DNA of 7,390 nt, from positions 1-7,390 of the forward strand of contig JAUVVP010000081.1 in NCBI GenBank assembly GCA_030604585.1, given 5' to 3'. The notes below the pieces were generated by a model. It did no database searches and was not told the origin of the DNA. It was given only the letters and a program-made list of their open reading frames with translations. Source of the stretch: Planctomycetota bacterium. Lineage in GTDB: Bacteria > Planctomycetota > Brocadiia > SM23-32. The position numbers were made by a program, and so were the translations under genes. This document shows, piece after piece, positions 730 to 7,390 of this stretch (within the stretch, counting starts at the first letter, position 1; the number at the start of each line of letters is the position of its first letter).

Positions 730-1701
730 TCAGAACTCATACTTGAAGCACGCAGCAAAGACCTGCTCATCCTTATGGTTGGCCACCGTGCCGAAATCGC
801 CGTAGCCGGCCCCGATGGTCATACGATCGTTGATGATGTAGCAGGCGCACACCGTCCACCAGGGATCCTCGTGATCGAAGAGGCCAGGAATGCTGTCCAG
901 GTCGCTCTCTTTCTGGCGGTACTCAGCGGCCAGGATGAGCCTGTCGGTCAAGAAGACGGCGGCGTTGCCCTCGAAGGTGACGCGGTAATCGTCGGTGAAC
1001 CCGAACAACCCGATGTGTGTTGCCTTTGATGCCCGAGCTCCCGCTGACACCATGACCGGACGAGGCAGGAAGGTCAACGTCTTGGTGGCCGTCAGCGTGA
1101 AGTCCACGCCGTAGTCGTCTTCGAGGCCCAGGTCGCTCAGTACACCGTCCAGGCGCCGGTCGATGTCCTCGACATCCTCGTTATACTTGAGGTGGGCTCC
1201 GACGGTGACGGCGGGCAGCCAGCCCAGCTCCCAGTTGTTCTCCTCTATGACGTTGAGCCGGGCGTTGAAGTGGTGGAGGAGGATGTCATTGGTCCTGATG
1301 TCCACGCCGGTCGCCAGACGGATGTCATGGTCCAGGTCGGCCAGACCAAGGCGGTTGATGCCGTACCCCAACTCCAAGCGCCGCCACAGCGTCCACGTCA
1401 GCGTCAGAGTCTCGAGGTCCTTCTGACCGATCCTCGCCCAGTGGGTGGACACCGCAGGTTTGCCGATGACCGTTCCAGCCGGCCCCGGGTTCACGAGGTA
1501 GGCGAAGGGCGTGATGAACACGCCGCCGACGCCTTCAACGGTGTGCAGGGGCAGCGGCGGCCCCTCGTCCGCTGCTGCGGGTTCGGTCTCTTGCTCCGCG
1601 GCCATCGTCCCGGTCGCGACCAGCAGGAGCGCGCCCAGACACATCACTCGTCCAATAAGCTTGCAGGTCCTGCGTATACCGCGCCTCCCCCTCGGGCTCA
1701 T
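730..1701 (-). CDS. DUF3034-like outer-membrane beta-barrel protein
   Basis: Predicted protein of 323 residues. The chosen start is the ATG at 1699-1701, which has GGAAGGAG about 6 nt upstream and begins a good signal peptide: basic n-region (RGRRGIRR), hydrophobic core at about 15-30, probable cleavage after T-M-A-A (residue 35). An in-frame ATG further upstream (1798-1800) would add 33 residues before the signal peptide and overlap a terminator-like hairpin, so I rejected it. The mature part alternates short amphipathic strands with polar turns and ends in F-K-Y-E-F, the C-terminal aromatic signature of proteins inserted by the BAM complex. The segments TVEGVGGVFITPFAYLVNP, LELGYG, TLTATKTL and AGYGDFGT resemble, from memory, the DUF3034 family, whose function is unknown. 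No substrate or pore role can be assigned. A Cys pair (C-A-C) near the C-terminus is unusual for a barrel. It lies between the selenoprotein cluster and the corrinoid gene; a functional link to either is not evident. Confidence 0.8.
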   Translation of the reverse strand: MSPRGRRGIRRTCKLIGRVMCLGALLLVATGTMAAEQETEPAAADEGPPLPLHTVEGVGGVFITPFAYLVNPGPAGTVIGKPAVSTHWARIGQKDLETLTLTWTLWRRLELGYGINRLGLADLDHDIRLATGVDIRTNDILLHHFNARLNVIEENNWELGWLPAVTVGAHLKYNEDVEDIDRRLDGVLSDLGLEDDYGVDFTLTATKTLTFLPRPVMVSAGARASKATHIGLFGFTDDYRVTFEGNAAVFLTDRLILAAEYRQKESDLDSIPGLFDHEDPWWTVCACYIINDRMTIGAGYGDFGTVANHKDEQVFAACFKYEF

Positions 1702-1814: not shown

Positions 1815-2009
1815 CTATTCAGCGCCGGGCGCCCTCCCGTTTGCGCTTCGGTGACCCTCGGTCCGCCTCGGGCTGCGCCGGCGCCGGCCCCTGATGCCTC
1901 GCTGTACTCGCCACGAGTACCGGCAGACGCCACGTCAGCCATACTCAAAGGCGTCCGAGACGATAGCTGTCAGCAACTGTTCCATGACCTGAACTGCGCA
2001 AGAGATACG
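1815..2009 (-). pseudogene. Decayed third copy of the selenoprotein C-terminal (Sec/SECIS) region
   Basis: This minus-strand frame runs from just after a TAA (2010-2012), through a TGA at 1935-1937, to a TAG at 1815-1817. Around the TGA it reads VSDAFEYG-U-RGVCRYSWRV, against VSDSFEYG-U-GGTCRYSWRV in selenoprotein A. Weaker similarity extends about 12 codons upstream (VQVMEQ against FKIIDE) and a few codons downstream (RG-I-RGRRR against AS-F-KGRFR), after which it becomes low-complexity Arg-rich. The 300-odd codons expected upstream are absent, both Gly-Gly and Thr of the GGTC motif are altered, and there is no clear ribosome binding site. The UGA, the Cys four residues later and the hairpin survive. 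I read it as the stump of a third tandem paralogue after an internal deletion. A tiny functional selenopeptide starting at ATG 1983-1985 is possible but unlikely. Confidence 0.7.
1904..1937 (-). promoter_or_regulatory. SECIS-like hairpin retained in the third-copy remnant
   Basis: The TGA is at 1935-1937. The stem GTACTCG/CGAGTAC (7 bp, perfect) with loop TGG begins 15 nt after the TGA, at the same spacing as in the two intact genes. Sequence outside the stem has drifted, while the stem and loop are unchanged. This could be recent common origin rather than selection. Confidence 0.55.
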
Positions 2010-2027: not shown

Positions 2028-3359
2028 CTACCGGACCGTATGCCACTGGTCCGCGTTGACGGCCTGGAACTGGCCGAGATCGGCTTCGACCACGACGCGA
2101 AACCTTCCTTTGAAGCTCGCAGGCACTCGCCACGAGTACCGGCAGGTGCCTCCTCAGCCGTACTCGAACGAGTCGGAAACGCCGGTCCTGCCCCGTTCGT
2201 CAATGATCTTGAACTTCGGCGCCTTCTGCAGCCGGCCGTTCTTCTGCACGCCGGGTAGGTACTCCTCGCCCGCCTGTCCCGCGACCAGGCAACCGATGGA
2301 CACGAGCCCCGTGCCGACGCTGCGTGCCTCCGTCTTGATAGTCAGGGGCGGGCCCGCCCTGAGCGAAAGCGTCTCGCCGCCGCGAATCCCGAAGCTCGCC
2401 AGCCGCCCCGTGTTGCCCTCGCCCTGGAGCGTCCACGTGTCCCTTCGGCTATCGGTGGAGCTCATGCGCACGGATGTCGTGAAGTACTGGCCGGCCGGCA
2501 ATTGCCACCTGCCGCCGTTGCCGCTCAGACGGTAGGGGCCGCTGTCAGACAGGAGCGTCAGTTCGGCATGGGGGTACCCGATGTCCAGGACTCCCACGTC
2601 GGGTTCCGTCCGCAGGAGGCTGATGGCTGAGCCATCCTGCGCGACCTCGATGCCGTAGTACGTGCCGTTCACGCGGATCATCTTCGGCAGCGGCATGATC
2701 TCGCCGGCTCCGTAGATGTCACCATCGATCCTTCCGTCGCCGTTCAGGTCTATGGCGAGCCAATCGCCGCCGGTCGGTCCGGAAGACGCCGACAGGACGC
2801 CGTCGTAGCGGCCGTCGTAATCCCCGTCCACAACTCCCACCTGGTAAGTGCGCCCGCCCAGCGTGACCCGTCCGGACATGACCCCTGCGGGATAGACGGC
2901 CACCGATGGAGACCCGATCGGCGCCTTGTAGACCTCGACGCGGAGAGCCGACCGGCTTCCGGCCTCGGCGCCGCGGGCCTGCACGAAGACGGGGCCGAGC
3001 TGGTAGACGGACGTAGTGCCCTGCCGTCGGGTTCCCCCCCGCGGCAGCGGGCTCTCGTCGGACAGGTCGCCGTCCCCGTCCGTATCCGCATAGCAATGGG
3101 AAGGGTTGGAGGGGTCGAGCGCGACCAGCAGGGAAGTGCGCCCCGGGGTCCGGGCCGAATAGCACGTGAACCCAGGCTTCAGGCCCGCGGGAACGCGCTC
3201 CACACCGCGATGCAGGAACTGGCGGGCCTTGACCGCACAGGCATGAGAGGGGTCCGTCAGTTGCTGGTACTGCAAGGGGAACGTCCCGTCCGCCCGGAGT
3301 GACAGGGACAGGGGGAAGAGCAGAAACCAGGATGCGGCCGCGAGCGTTACCTTCTTCAT
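2028..3359 (-). CDS. Exported selenoprotein A, Sec at residue 402 (in-frame UGA 2154-2156), unrecognised family
   Basis: Predicted 443-residue protein when the TGA at 2154-2156 is read as selenocysteine; the true stop is TAG 2028-2030. The start ATG 3357-3359 follows GAGAGGGG. A signal peptide covers residues 1-23 (MKK, then a hydrophobic core, cleavage near L-R-A/D-G), so the product is exported. Asp-rich loops resembling calcium-binding EF-hand/dockerin loops occur at 92-100 (D-T-D-G-D-G-D) and 204-212 (D-L-N-G-D-G-R-I-D), with a related D-G-D-Y-D-G-R-Y-D at 178-186. The C-terminal region (about 335-443) is beta-rich, Ig-like in character, and holds EYG-U402-GGT-C406-x-YSWRVP. Read-through is supported by 26 of 41 identities with the paralogue's tail, by synonymous codon differences, by the hairpin after the UGA, and by adjacent selA/selB. 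Other Cys in the mature part are 41, 66, 89 and 357. Function is unknown; a redox or metal role for the U/C pair is inference. If the TGA were a stop, the product would be 401 residues. Confidence 0.88.
2122..2156 (-). promoter_or_regulatory. SECIS element of selenoprotein A
   Basis: The UGA is at 2154-2156. Starting 14 nt downstream is an 8-bp stem GGTACTCG/CGAGTGCC (one U-G pair) closed by loop UGG, with the loop at nt 22-24 after the UGA. Known bacterial SECIS elements are coding-region hairpins just after the UGA, with a G early in the apical loop and a UGA-to-loop distance of roughly 16-37 nt; this fits. An alternative fold pairs GGCAC with GTGCC and GCC with GGC around a 9-nt loop beginning GG. 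SelB would bind here during translation. Confidence 0.78.
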
Positions 3360-3468: not shown

Positions 3469-3513
3469 AAGAAGGGGTCAGACCCTCTTGACTAAAGGGC
3501 CTGACCCCTTTTT
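3469..3513. repeat. REP-like imperfect inverted repeat (GGGGTCAG core), possible terminator
   Basis: Arms at 3472-3485 (AAGGGGTCAGACCC) and 3497-3510 (GGGCCTGACCCCTT) pair at 13 of 14 positions around an 11-nt loop. Flanking A/T pairs and a G-T wobble extend the stem to 3469-3513. From memory, GGGGTCAG...CTGACCCC palindromes recur in many environmental bacterial genomes as dispersed REP/MITE-like elements. On the plus strand the hairpin ends in a T-run; on the minus strand it is followed by TTCTTCC and could end selenoprotein B's transcript. Confidence 0.6.
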
Positions 3514-3669
3514 CTCCTCGACCTTGTCAACAGAGCAAACCTCTGCCAGAATGAACCGCCGAGGGCCCGCCGGAGCCAGCCACGCAGAGACCATTCAAGG
3601 AGCAGTGTCAGTGCCATTCTTTTTTCCGGCCTCTGCGCTCTCGGCCCGAAGTCCTTTCTGTTGGACGAC

Positions 3670-5013
3670 CTAACGGATGGTGTGCCACTTCTCTTTGCTG
3701 GTTACCTCGAACGGTCCGAGGTCGGCCTCAACGTCAACGCGGTACTTGCCTTTGAAATCCTTCGGTACTCGCCACGAGTACGCGCAGGTGCCGCCTCACC
3801 CATACTCGACGGCGCCGGAGGTGAGCACTTTTCCCGATTCATCCACGATCTTGAACTTGGGCGGGGACCCCGTGCTTCCATTCTTCGTTACTCCGGCCGT
3901 GTACTCCTCCCCGCCCTGTCCCGTCACGGACAGGCCGATCGCGACCTGTCCCCTGCTAGCCTGGCGTGCATCGGTCTGGACCGTCAGCGGCGGGCCCATC
4001 TTAACGGAGGTTGTCTCGTCTTCTCTTATCCGGAAAGTGCTCAGCTTCCCCAGCTTCGAACCCATCCGGAGGACCCACCGATCTCCCTTCTCATCCGTAG
4101 CGCTCAACGCCAACCCCCTGGTGACGTAGCGGCCCGTCGGAAGGTCCCATTTCCCTTCGGAGCCGCCGAGCACGAAGTAGCCCGAATCGGACATCACGGT
4201 CAACTGCGCGGCCGGCACGCCGACGTCGAGCGCCCCCAACGCCGGCTCGGCCTTCGCGAGCGTGATGCTTGAGCCGTCAGGGGCCACTGCCACGCTGTAG
4301 AAGGCGTCCTTCACACGGAGCAGTTTCGTCAGGGGCAGGATCTCCGGGCTTTCGTAAGGCCGGGGGTCGAACTGACCGTCCCCGTCCAGGTCTATGGCCA
4401 GCCAATCGTACTCCGAGCGGCTCCTGGCGATAGTGCGGTCGTAGTGGCCGTCGAAGCCCCCGTCCACGAGCTGCACGCGGTAGGACTCGCCGCCCAACTC
4501 GACCTGGCCCGAGCGAAAGACGCCGGGATGGACCTCCATGTAGCCGCCCCCGCCTTCCCAGACGGTAACCTGGAAGCGGGCATGTACCGCCGCCCCGTCC
4601 GCCCCAACCCGCAGGGCGACAGGGCCGAAGTGGTGGATCGACATGCCGGCCATCACGACCTCGCCCGGCGGCTTGACCGCTTCCAGCGGCCGTTCCTCGG
4701 CCAGGTTGAGGTCGCCGTCCGTGTCCACGTACAGCTTCGGTGTCTCACCCAGGTCGGCCAGCAGCAGGATCGGCTTCCGCCCGGGCCTCATCGTGTAGTA
4801 AATCACGTCGTCTGACAGGCCCTCCGGCAGGTCTTTCACCCCGTAGGGCTTGCCGGGAAGGGCCGGCACGTACTGCCGCACCCTGGAGGCAACGGCCGGC
4901 GGCTCGGCCCCGATCTCCTGCTCGTCCAGGGCAAACTCCCCCTGCGCCCGAGCAAGCGAGCACGGAGCCCAGAGAAACAAGCCCAACACGATCGCCAACG
5001 CTGCCCTTTTCAT
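3670..5013 (-). CDS. Exported selenoprotein B, Sec at residue 406 (in-frame UGA 3796-3798), paralogue of selenoprotein A
   Basis: Predicted 447-residue protein when TGA 3796-3798 is read as selenocysteine; the stop is TAG 3670-3672. Start ATG 5011-5013 is preceded by GGGGGA. A signal peptide covers residues 1-23 (MKR, hydrophobic core, cleavage near A-R-A/Q-G). Asp loops lie at 97-101 (D-T-D-G-D) and 208-216 (D-L-D-G-D-G-Q-F-D), with V-D-G-G-F-D-G-H-Y-D at 183-192, matching the paralogue in order and spacing. The C-terminal beta-rich region ends with EYG-U406-GGT-C410-A-YSWRVP and a further 31 residues. After signal peptide removal, Cys410 is the only cysteine in the whole protein, so U406/C410 is the sole possible selenylsulfide pair. 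The gene diverges from selA, and a good promoter at 5199-5228 implies a leader of about 180 nt. The family is not recognised. If the TGA were a true stop, a 405-residue cysteine-free mature protein would result. Confidence 0.9.
3764..3798 (-). promoter_or_regulatory. SECIS element of selenoprotein B
   Basis: The UGA is at 3796-3798. The stem GTACTCG/CGAGTAC (7 bp, perfect) with loop UGG begins 15 nt downstream, the loop at nt 22-24, as in selenoprotein A. With one bulged C on the 5' side, two further G-C pairs extend the stem. The stem also encodes Y-S-W-R-V, so RNA and protein constraints overlap. Confidence 0.78.
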
Positions 5014-5404: not shown

Positions 5405-6826
5405 ATGGCGTCGAAGGAAAGTATGCTGCGCAGGCTGCCCGCCGTGGACGCCTTGCTCCAGGACGAAGGCCTGGTGGGGTGCACCGGCGGCGTGCCGCGC
5501 AAGGTCGTGGCGGACTCTGTGCGCGCGTCGCTTGAGCAGATGCGTGCGTTGATCCTGGAGGGGGCCGTCGAGGAGACCGCCGACGAAGCGATCCGCGAGG
5601 CCGTGATCCTGGAGGCCAGGCGGCGCATTCGGGCCGCGGTCGGGCCCCATTACCGCAAGGTGGTCAACGCCACTGGCATCATCCTCCACACGGGCCTGGG
5701 GCGCGCCGTTCTGGCCGAGGGGGCGCTGCGGCAGATCCGAGAGGAGCTGTCCGGCTACTCCCTGCTGCAACTGGGCGCCGAGACGGGCAAGCGCTCGAAA
5801 CGCGACGGGCGGATCGAATGGCTGCTGCGGCAACTGACGGGCGCCGAGGCCGCCACGGTCGTCAACAACAACGCCGCCGCCACCCTGATCGTGCTGAACA
5901 CGGTCGCCGCGGGCAGGGAGGTCATCGTCTCGCGCGGCCAGCTCGTCGAGATAGGAGGGTCCTTCCGCCTGCCGGAGGTGATGGCGGCCGGCGGGGTGAA
6001 GCTTGTTGAGGTGGGCGCGACCAACAGGACCCACCCGCGGGACTACGAGAACGCCATCACGCAGGAGACCGCCGCCATCCTGCGCTGCCATCCGAGCAAT
6101 TACGTGATCTCGGGGTTCACGTCGGAGGTCCCTCTGGAGGAGCTGGTGGGGATTGCGCACTCTCGCGGGCTCGTGCTCATAGACGACGTCGGCGCCGGCG
6201 CGCTGGTGGACTTCTCACGCTTCGGCTTCCGACGGGAACCCACCTTGCCGGACTCCATCCGGGCCGGGGCGGACCTGGTGACCTCCAGCGCCGATAAGCT
6301 CATCGGCGCCTGCCAGGGCGGCATCATCCTCGGCAGGACCGACCTGATAGAGGCGGTGCGGAGCAACCCGCTGGCCCGGGCCGTCCGCGTCGGCAAGCTG
6401 ACACTGGCGGCGCTGGAGGCCACTCTGACGCTCTTTCTCGACGAGTCGCTCGCCCTGGCCGAGGTGCCGGTCCTGCGCATGCTCAGGCGGGAGCTGTCGG
6501 ACGTCTCCGAGCAGGCGGAGCGCATCGCGCGGGCGATCCGCAAGAGCGCTCCCGCCGGCTCCGTGCAGGTCGAGACTGTCGAGGGCTTCTCCCAGATGGG
6601 GAGCGGCTCGCTGCCGGGGCAGGACCTGCCGACGCGCTTGGTGGCGACCGGGCCGGCGGGGATGTCATCGGAAGAGCTGGCCCTGCGCCTGCGCCGCAGC
6701 GCCCCGCCGGTGTTCGCGCGCATCCGGCACGACCGGGTGCTCCTTGACCCGCGCACGCTGCTGGAGGGTGAGGAGCAGATTGTGGTGGAGGCAGTTGCCG
6801 GGGCGCTCACGACCTCTGAGCACTGA
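5405..6826 (+). CDS. selA: L-seryl-tRNA(Sec) selenium transferase
   Basis: SelA is the cytoplasmic PLP enzyme that converts seryl-tRNA(Sec) to selenocysteyl-tRNA(Sec) using selenophosphate. The predicted 473 residues are close to the E. coli protein (about 463). The N-terminal tRNA-binding part (about 1-75) includes LPAVDALL. The conserved VNATGIILHTGLGR is at 87-100, and GAETGKRSKRD at 124-134 is typical of the family. VNNNAAAT is at 153-160 and RGQLVEIGGSFRLPEVM at 177-193. The cofactor-binding LIDDVGAGAL is at 259-268, and the Schiff-base lysine is K298 in SSADKLIG. The start ATG 5405-5407 is chosen because GGGGGAA lies just upstream and the N-terminus begins like other SelA proteins. The frame stays open for 555 nt further upstream, but that part is antisense to selenoprotein B and its leader. 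Its own promoter is at 5309-5337. selB follows after 128 nt, so an operon is likely. Confidence 0.97.
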   Translation: MASKESMLRRLPAVDALLQDEGLVGCTGGVPRKVVADSVRASLEQMRALILEGAVEETADEAIREAVILEARRRIRAAVGPHYRKVVNATGIILHTGLGRAVLAEGALRQIREELSGYSLLQLGAETGKRSKRDGRIEWLLRQLTGAEAATVVNNNAAATLIVLNTVAAGREVIVSRGQLVEIGGSFRLPEVMAAGGVKLVEVGATNRTHPRDYENAITQETAAILRCHPSNYVISGFTSEVPLEELVGIAHSRGLVLIDDVGAGALVDFSRFGFRREPTLPDSIRAGADLVTSSADKLIGACQGGIILGRTDLIEAVRSNPLARAVRVGKLTLAALEATLTLFLDESLALAEVPVLRMLRRELSDVSEQAERIARAIRKSAPAGSVQVETVEGFSQMGSGSLPGQDLPTRLVATGPAGMSSEELALRLRRSAPPVFARIRHDRVLLDPRTLLEGEEQIVVEAVAGALTTSEH

Positions 6827-6954: not shown

Positions 6955-7390
6955 ATGCCACTGGAACACCCCAACATTACGCTCGGCACGGCCGGCCACA
7001 TAGACCACGGCAAGACGGAGCTGATCAAGTTCCTTACCGGCTGCGACACCGACCGCCTGAAGGCGGAGAAGGAACGCGGCATGTCCATTGACCTGGGCTT
7101 TGCCCCCTGCACGCTCGCCAACATGCAGGTGGGGATCGTGGACGTGCCGGGCCACGAGAACTTCGTCAAGACCATGGTGGCGGGGGCGAGCGGGATGGAT
7201 GGGGTCATCCTCGTTGTGGCCGCCGACGACGGCGTCATGCCGCAGACGCGCGAGCACCTGGAGATACTGGCCCTGCTCGGCGTCGAGCACGGCGTAGTGG
7301 CGCTGACGAAGATCGACCGCGTCGAGCCCGACCACCTCGAGATGGCGCGCGAAGAGGCGCGGGACTTCCTGAAAGGGACGTTCCTGGAAG
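6955..7390 (+). CDS. selB: Selenocysteine-specific elongation factor SelB, N-terminal 145 residues (3'-truncated by window edge)
   Basis: SelB is a GTPase that carries selenocysteyl-tRNA(Sec) to the ribosome and recognises the SECIS hairpin. The visible part is most of the GTP-binding domain. The G1 motif GHIDHGKT is at 14-21 and the switch I segment [11 protein letters not shown] at 40-50, a form typical of SelB rather than EF-Tu. G3 DVPGH is at 63-67 and G4 TKID at 118-121. ATG 6955-6957 is preceded by AAAGGG with a 5-nt gap. The EF-Tu-like domains 2 and 3 and the C-terminal winged-helix repeats that bind the SECIS lie beyond the edge. It is the second gene of the selA unit and supplies the machinery needed by the two adjacent UGA-containing genes. 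No frameshift is visible. Confidence 0.96.

What the first reader, a model, noticed from the sequence alone, without database searches (positions are those of the whole stretch)
2028..3359. Unrecognised exported selenoprotein hidden by an in-frame UGA (selenoprotein A)
The apparent stop TGA (2154-2156) is followed in the same frame by 41 sense codons and a TAG. The added tail (GGTCRYSWRVP..., ending WHTVR) matches the tail beyond the neighbour's TGA at 26 of 41 residues. Codons for shared residues differ mainly at third positions (for example GGA/GGC, GAA/GAG, GAT/GAC, CAT/CAC), as expected if the tail is translated. A SECIS-like hairpin follows the UGA, and selA/selB are in the same window. 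I do not recognise the family among known bacterial selenoproteins.
Basis: partly seen in the sequence, partly recalled or inferred. Interest (0 to 1): 0.95.

Follow-up and report, generated by a model that had tools for sequence, protein, structure and literature searches.

The report
Hidden exported bacterial selenoprotein family
Two neighbouring genes that look cut short by a UGA stop signal likely read through it, inserting the rare amino acid selenocysteine to complete a predicted exported protein, and relatives with a UGA inside the same domain occur in 89 of 392 sampled genomes of the same phylum, so a whole protein family has likely been mis-annotated as truncated.

Summary
Genes A (2031-3359, -) and B (3673-5013, -) each carry an in-frame TGA, then 41 codons and TAG; the tails match at 26 of 41 residues. 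With a 65-row domain profile, 112 of 392 genomes of the phylum match; 140 of 150 listed matches contain an in-frame TGA (TAG in one, TAA in none). In two relatives the frame runs on past the TGA, without another stop, into ankyrin repeats (206 codons) or a LamG domain (564 codons). A hairpin with its loop 21 nt after the TGA covaries, and bacterial-SECIS matches exceed synonymous-codon shuffles (37 of 70 against 7.0). Three relatives have Cys at the site, one in a 99%-complete genome without selA, selB or tRNA-Sec over cut-off. AlphaFold puts the site inside one Ig/macroglobulin-like domain that the TGA would cut. selA lies near the gene in 11 genomes; operons include SelD, double-cubane reductases, corrinoid proteins or MtaA-type methyltransferases. 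No NCBIfam or Pfam model is met over cut-off, and no entry of a 119-family inventory fits. Sec insertion: very likely. Function (selenium acquisition or envelope redox): inferred. No protein-level proof.

The parts
2031..3359 (-). selenoprotein gene A: 443-aa read-through product (stop TAG 2028-2030), N-terminal signal-peptide-like stretch, Sec at residue 402
   Evidence: export is read from the N-terminal sequence only
2154..2156 (-). Sec UGA codon of A
   Evidence: same position as TGA in relatives
2122..2140 (-). SECIS-like hairpin of A, 8-bp stem, UGG loop, loop 21 nt after the UGA
   Evidence: covariation
2031..2153 (-). 41-codon tail of A, predicted to complete the Ig-like domain
   Evidence: 26 of 41 identical to B
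3673..5013 (-). selenoprotein gene B: 447-aa read-through product (stop TAG 3670-3672), Sec at residue 406
3796..3798 (-). Sec UGA codon of B
3765..3781 (-). SECIS-like hairpin of B, 7-bp stem, UGG loop, loop 21 nt after the UGA
3673..3795 (-). 41-codon tail of B; predicted last strands of the C-terminal Ig/MG-like domain
1898..1962 (-). third, truncated copy of the UGA/hairpin region (UGA 1935-1937, hairpin 1904-1920), 53 of 65 bases as in A
5405..6826 (+). selA, selenocysteine synthase, divergent from B; itself ends in TGA
6955..7389 (+). selB, 5' part only (contig ends)
730..1701 (-). DUF3034 protein, likely outer-membrane, downstream of A; also near the Sec genes in L008 and L014
2..580 (-). 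corrinoid protein (Pfam B12-binding over cut-off; best NCBIfam model just under its cut-off), cut by the contig end

Best explanation
Genes A and B are predicted selenoproteins: the in-frame UGA at residue 402 or 406 is likely decoded as selenocysteine by the SelA/SelB system encoded beside them, directed by a downstream hairpin that covaries among relatives. Shown here by sequence: the conserved UGA, the conserved tail, the covarying hairpin, Cys forms (one in a genome without the Sec machinery over cut-off), and UGA still used as a stop in the same contig. Predicted: the tail supplies the last strands of a C-terminal Ig/macroglobulin-like domain, placing Sec in a YG-U-GGxC loop; an N-terminal signal peptide sends the protein out of the cytoplasm. 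Inferred (about 35%): Sec, usually with the Cys four residues on, works as a redox or soft-ligand pair at the envelope in acquiring or handling selenium compounds, because in several relatives the genes sit in sel-locus operons with an outer-membrane-type protein, an ABC importer, double-cubane reductases with their activase, SelD, or corrinoid or MtaA-type methyltransfer proteins.
For: Conserved TGA: 140 of 150 listed matches, one also with a TAG, none with a TAA. 70 distinct sites: 63 with Gly before Sec, 48 with Cys at +4. SECIS: 37 of 70 sites meet the published bacterial model against 7.0 expected from synonymous-codon shuffles (model read). All 7 stem pairs show a change on both sides, three of them in 9-13 of 32 sequences; covariation score 0.474 against 0.142 shuffled and at most 0.165 when slid. 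The frame runs on 206 codons into ankyrin repeats and 564 into LamG. Cys at the site in G426, G260 and G245; G426 is 99% complete with no selA match and no selB or tRNA-Sec over cut-off. Strong selA in 82 of 89 TGA-bearing genomes against 160 of 303 others, Fisher p 5e-13; selA near the gene in 11 genomes. Domain: mean pLDDT 91.4, site inside residues 341-447. UGA stays a stop: selA and DUF3034 end in TGA. Operons.
Against: No protein-level data. The own draft genome (70% complete) shows no tRNA-Sec over cut-off and no selD over cut-off; selB is a fragment. Folded singly, the hairpins of A, B and the fragment are not exceptional (z -1.99, -0.69, -0.71). Against synonymous shuffles A alone is p 0.10, B p 0.01; the isolated B stem (-7.2 kcal/mol) just misses the -7.5 limit. 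33 of 70 sites fail the strict SECIS rule, though some keep the stem with a wider loop. Four of the seven covarying pairs rest on one sequence each, and pair 9-13 is unpaired in 14 of 32. The Sec loop itself is the weak part of the model (residues 401-410, pLDDT 68). 7 of 89 TGA-bearing genomes lack a strong selA; three have selB, four were not tested. Five of the ten listed matches without TGA have neither Sec nor Cys at the site. No activity is known for the fold, and operon content differs between genomes.
Confidence: 0.93

Rival explanations
1. UGA is a true stop; A and B end at EYG, and the tail is a remnant of an older, longer protein or a separate small gene.
For: Gene callers end 9 of 12 database homologues here; relatives without Sec exist (L006, first gene of L007). 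In the ankyrin and LamG cases a separate start codon after the TGA cannot be excluded (downstream ORFs are listed).
Against: Tail under purifying selection; covarying hairpin; in-frame stops are TGA in 140 listed matches, TAG in 1, TAA in 0; the cut would fall inside one predicted domain; Cys at the same site in three genomes.
Confidence: 0.03
2. UGA is reassigned to another amino acid in this lineage, or is read through nonspecifically by near-cognate tRNA.
For: The frames stay open when UGA is read as sense.
Against: selA and DUF3034 in the same contig end in TGA; in many relatives the next in-frame stop after the Sec TGA is again a TGA; the site-specific hairpin and the Sec machinery would be unneeded; Cys replaces it in a genome without the machinery over cut-off.
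Confidence: 0.02
3. The proteins are selenoproteins, but the Sec domain is mainly an antioxidant or structural redox clip of envelope proteins in general; its nearness to sel genes only reflects co-regulation.
For: The domain occurs in varied architectures (ankyrin, LamG, short membrane-anchored forms), and near a listed selA in only 11 of 89 genomes (the selA listing is cut).
Against: In L007, L008, L011, L012, L014 and G004 the Sec gene is followed by a methyltransferase gene and, where scanned, HgdB-like or SelD genes.
Confidence: 0.5

Closest known systems
Bacterial selenoproteins with a downstream bSECIS (119 families/subfamilies in the 2026 inventory PMC13188914)
   Same: UGA, hairpin 16-37 nt on with G in the first two loop positions, SelA/SelB nearby, Sec-Cys spacing typical of redox motifs; one entry (TsoA, LULAxC) has the same Sec-to-Cys spacing of four
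   Different: No table entry has a YGUGG or UGGxC motif; no NCBIfam or Pfam model over its cut-off; predicted all-beta Ig-like domain, not thioredoxin-like; few Cys forms seen (three)
DUF1573 selenoproteins (UGC motif), listed in the same table
   Same: Recalled: exported proteins with Ig-like (ASH) domains
   Different: U-G-C motif and other Pfam family (PF07610); no PF07610 hit in A or B
MG2 macroglobulin domain (PF01835; alpha-2-macroglobulin, complement C3/C5)
   Different: Sequence score 13.9 bits against a cut-off of 32.8; no Sec loop known to me in MG2
Type I mlp gene clusters for methyl-selenide salvage (PMC10418091, preprint)
   Same: Corrinoid protein beside Sec genes (window), MtaA/CmuA-type methyltransferases beside a Sec gene and a SelD-like gene (G105), double-cubane proteins with selABD in other members
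   Different: The passages read mention methionine transporters and dicubane proteins, but no exported Ig-like selenoprotein and no DUF3034

Membership tests
bacterial selenoprotein | in-frame UGA conserved at one position with conserved coding sequence beyond it | tested here: met
bacterial selenoprotein | bSECIS: loop 3-9 nt, stem 4-16 bp, G in first two loop positions, 16-37 nt from UGA, MFE <= -7.5 | tested here: met
   A meets all: 8 bp, UGG, 21 nt, -10.5. B: 7 bp, UGG, 21 nt, isolated stem -7.2 (just misses), 45-nt fold -14.4. Family: 37 of 70 against 7.0 expected
bacterial selenoprotein | host has selA, selB, selD and tRNA-Sec | tested here: inconclusive
   own genome: selA whole, selB cut, selD and tRNA-Sec not found over cut-off in a 70% draft. 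Relative G004: selA, selD and tRNA-Sec over cut-off and a selB-like frame read by eye beside selA, all on one contig
bacterial selenoprotein | Sec/Cys pair among homologues | tested here: met
   TGC at the site in G426, G260 and G245; none of these is a close relative of A or B
bacterial selenoprotein | selenium in the protein | not testable with these tools
   needs 75Se labelling or mass spectrometry
any NCBIfam or Pfam family | score over the curated cut-off | tested here: not met
   A, B and ten divergent members, (only sub-cut-off hits)
thioredoxin-fold selenoproteins | alpha/beta thioredoxin fold around Sec | tested here: not met
   the model's only helix of four or more residues is 2-21; domain alone all beta
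MG2 (PF01835) | sequence score over 32.8 bits | tested here: not met
   13.9 bits
MG2-like fold | structural match standing clear of unrelated folds | tested here: inconclusive
type I mlp gene cluster | Mlp methyltransferases plus corrinoid protein | tested here: inconclusive
   window: corrinoid only, contig ends. G105: two MtaA/CmuA-type genes, one over an NCBIfam cut-off and one below, corrinoid not seen

The most novel reading that the evidence does not exclude
A phylum-wide class of exported selenoproteins, built on an Ig/macroglobulin-like domain with Sec in a YG-U-GGxC loop and rarely found as a Cys form, serves selenium acquisition itself: a Sec-bearing envelope protein that captures or activates (methyl)selenium for the importer, corrinoid and double-cubane enzymes and SelD encoded in the same operons.
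Probability: 0.35. Interest if true: 0.92.

Novelty: new variant of a known kind. Interest (0 to 1): 0.83.

Why it matters
The decoding mechanism is the known one; the protein family is not. It is widespread (TGA-bearing matches in 89 of 392 sampled genomes of the phylum), and the close relatives of B found in the protein database end at the UGA as unnamed or hypothetical proteins. Few Cys forms were seen, and a current predictor says it may miss selenoproteins without Cys homologues (deep-Sep paper, passage read). It puts Sec in a predicted all-beta extracytoplasmic domain rather than a thioredoxin fold, offers a candidate for Sec-utilising genomes in which no selenoprotein was recognised (noted as open in PMC5029168, passage read), and marks operons that may be a new selenium acquisition route.

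Tried and rejected
Rfam on the window gave one sub-threshold match (ylbH leader, 18 bits against a 50-bit cut-off, 3471-3625), taken as chance. tRNA-Sec in the own genome: 11 matches, all under the cut-off; of the 8 loci rescanned, ARAGORN gave ordinary tRNAs in 7 and none in L022. The tRNA-Sec cut-off is not fully specific (over it in 5 of 14 control genomes), so rests on best scores of 65-80 bits.

A search with the tail alone found only the window's own protein; this fits truncation in the databases but is weak evidence (7 candidates). A profile search scored only the 7997 candidates sharing most words and added P0013, a near relative of the Sec-less own paralogue.

Single-sequence folding energies do not prove the hairpins; the case rests on covariation and synonymous shuffles. 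The covariation set was chosen on protein (Trp at +8; 42 of 70 sites, 32 distinct) and its members are related, which the shuffles do not remove; the slid controls do. Code reassignment, pseudogene and assembly error were rejected (UGA stops in the same contig; 140 matches in 89 genomes). Pairs with few differences gave noisy dN/dS, for instance 0.73 in the tail of the L007/L008 pair. Foldseek matches were weak (best E 7.5e-5, TM about 0.1) and give no function. Sequence search of solved structures found nothing below E 0.06. DUF3034 is not a constant partner: found in 4 of 14 genomes, near the Sec gene in three of these. The adjacency p-value treats matches as independent and placed at random, so it is rough; the selA listing is cut, so nearby cases may be undercounted. 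The listing is cut near E 3e-6; 23 of its 112 genomes have no TGA row in the listed part. Of the ten listed matches without TGA: three have Cys at the site, five neither Cys nor Sec, one (G119) does not reach it, and one (G107:C177) has a TGA just beyond the match end.

Papers with this motif in Planctomycetes, Planctomycetota or Phycisphaerae: none found in the listings. One paper lists selenoprotein candidates of two Planctomycetes in a supplementary table that I could not see (PMC4807772, passages), so an earlier listing of a member is not excluded.

It also said that the ankyrin and LamG domains are reachable only through the TGA; a separate start cannot be excluded.

Full report
Observation. 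On the minus strand the window holds two tandem genes whose apparent ends are TGA codons: A (TGA 2154-2156) and B (TGA 3796-3798). Each TGA is followed by 41 sense codons and a TAG. The tails agree at 26 of 41 residues with dN/dS 0.23, against 0.48 for the bodies. Divergently beside B lie selA (complete) and selB (cut by the contig end). Downstream of A, on the same strand, lie a DUF3034 gene and a corrinoid protein. The contig is the whole window, from a 70%-complete draft.

Relatives. A protein search with read-through B gave 12 proteins: the window's own, nine that end at the UGA position (eight in YG, one in YE), and two longer ones without Sec. Where DNA was read, the same position is TGA and the frame goes on. 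One scan of genome contigs gave eight loci from seven isolates, all Planctomycetota. In the order, 2 of 10 genomes have the family; in the class 2 of 75; in the phylum 54 of 392 with the narrow profile A2. A script collected 70 distinct TGA sites, including the window's own remnant and one similar fragment in L095. With a 65-row profile (A5) 112 of 392 genomes match; of the 150 matches listed, 140 hold an in-frame TGA, one of them also a TAG, and none a TAA (the list is cut near E 3e-6). The profile was built from TGA-bearing sequences, so it favours their kin, but it does not favour TGA over other stops.

Motif. Among the 70 sites Gly precedes Sec in 63 and Cys in 6; Cys lies at +4 in 48; 14 have no Cys at -1 or +1 to +5. 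So Sec is the constant part and the Cys partner varies: YGUGGxC, YGUGFTC, YGUGGGG (no Cys) and CUGG forms.

Sec-less forms. Ten listed matches lack a TGA. Three have TGC at the site (G426, G260, G245), five have neither Cys nor Sec (including the own-genome paralogue at C202), one does not reach the site and one has a TGA just beyond the match end. The first gene of L007 has Arg. G426 is 99% complete, has no selA match and no selB or tRNA-Sec over cut-off, and BLASTP aligns its Cys with the Sec of three relatives.

Length beyond the UGA. In G004 the frame runs on for 206 codons into ankyrin repeats; in G342, a one-contig genome, for 564 codons into a LamG domain and a terminal hydrophobic stretch. 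A separate start after the TGA cannot be excluded in these two, though the conserved tail and the new domain share one frame. The median over 70 sites is 41 codons.

SECIS. The published bacterial model is met by 37 of 70 sites; shuffling synonymous codons, which keeps the peptide, gives 7.0. For the 42 sites with Trp at +8, a choice made on protein only, 32 distinct 21-nt stretches were aligned. All seven stem pairs show a change on both sides, three of them in 9 to 13 sequences and four in one each; the covariation score is 0.474 against 0.142 (sd 0.026) after shuffling and at most 0.165 after sliding. Examples are GGUACUCG-UGG-CGAGUACC, GCUCUCG-UGG-CGAGAGC and GGGCUCG-UGG-CGAGUCC. Against this, single hairpins of the window are not exceptional in energy, A alone is p 0.10 in the synonymous test (B 0.01), and 33 of 70 sites fail the strict rule.

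Machinery. Strong selA (E at most 1e-70) is present in 82 of 89 TGA-bearing genomes and in 160 of 303 others. Of the seven exceptions G123, G239 and G345 have selB over the cut-off; G231, G275, G322 and G328 were not tested. tRNA-Sec over the cut-off was found in 7 of 8 genomes tried; the eighth is G426.

Genome context. selA lies near a TGA-bearing gene in G000, G004, G086, G093, G105, G135, G241, G257, G342, G365 and G369; about 0.6 such rows would be expected at random (rough). The divergent arrangement of the window, selB-selA one way and a Sec gene the other, is seen in L008 and L013, and with selA in G004 and G105. In L008 the operon runs: two Sec genes, DUF3034, SAM methyltransferase, three HgdB-like proteins (one a double-cubane reductase over its cut-off), activase, SelD fused to a CMD domain. 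In L014 a Phenol_MetA_deg protein (likely outer-membrane) and an ABC importer follow the Sec gene, then DUF3034 and a methyltransferase. L010 has the Phenol_MetA_deg protein and importer after its Sec genes. G105 has two MtaA/CmuA-type methyltransferases (one over an NCBIfam cut-off) and then a SelD-like gene. G004 has a HgdB-like protein, activase, SelD-CMD and tRNA-Sec after the Sec gene. In L007 and L011 only the following methyltransferase was scanned.

Mechanism. Sec insertion at UGA by SelB with the hairpin is the ordinary bacterial mechanism (established knowledge; review sections read). What the protein does is inference: a Sec-Cys pair on an envelope domain, in operons that resemble methyl-selenide salvage clusters, for which a preprint reports corrinoid methyltransferases, dicubane proteins and selABD together (PMC10418091, passages read). 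I put about 35% on a role in selenium acquisition and about 50% on a more general envelope redox role.

Known or new. No NCBIfam or Pfam model is met over its cut-off by A, B or ten divergent members. The 119-entry table of PMC13188914 was read (section 7, parts 1 and 2 of 3) and has no YGUGG or UGGxC entry. Two entries come near in letters: TsoA (LULAxC, NF045695) has the same Sec-Cys spacing, and 'hypothetical protein DG' (GUxG, NF049953) shares GU and G; neither model is hit by the scanned proteins. Two papers that might describe related systems (Haft and Gwadz 2023; Haft and Tolstoy 2025) were not held; their families enter only through the table and NCBIfam. Six paper searches found no report of this family, but a supplementary list of planctomycete selenoprotein candidates (PMC4807772) could not be seen.

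Noticed in passing
window 1898-1962 (-): A 65-base remnant repeats the UGA and the SECIS-like hairpin of A (53 of 65 bases), without a full gene: a decayed third copy, or a mobile UGA-hairpin cassette.
   Followed up: partly
L095 (G342), UGA context FELEYGUGAVCRCSWRAPS: Another isolated UGA-hairpin fragment near selA/selB, with an 8-bp stem and little family sequence around it.
   Followed up: no
G004:C32 (L063) and G342:C1 (L068): The Sec domain runs on in frame into ankyrin repeats, or into LamG plus a terminal hydrophobic stretch.
   Followed up: yes
L010, L013, L007, L008: Short membrane-anchored forms (about 185-217 aa to the likely end) occur in tandem with each other or with the long form; in L007 the long copy has Arg in place of Sec next to a Sec copy.
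   Followed up: partly
L013:6714-7360: One tandem copy appears frameshifted before its UGA tail; assembly error or real decay not settled.
   Followed up: no
L108:13020-14693, L063:7846-9453: SelD fused to a CMD/AhpD-type domain.
   Followed up: partly
window 730-1701 (-): DUF3034 gene beside the Sec genes in three loci (window, L008, L014); function unknown.
   Followed up: partly
G000:C202 (L006): Own-genome paralogue that has lost both Sec and the +4 Cys (MRRGGGFATYTVSW), hinting that the two residues work as a pair.
   Followed up: partly
L111 (G260:C17) and L112 (G245:C885): Cys forms of the family in genomes that do have a strong selA, so Sec and Cys forms coexist with the machinery.
   Followed up: partly
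sites of L046, L053, L061, L079, L080, L081, L083: Subfamily with YGUGGGG/YGUGGGA-type loops and no +4 Cys; six of these seven pass the SECIS rule with a different hairpin sequence.
   Followed up: no
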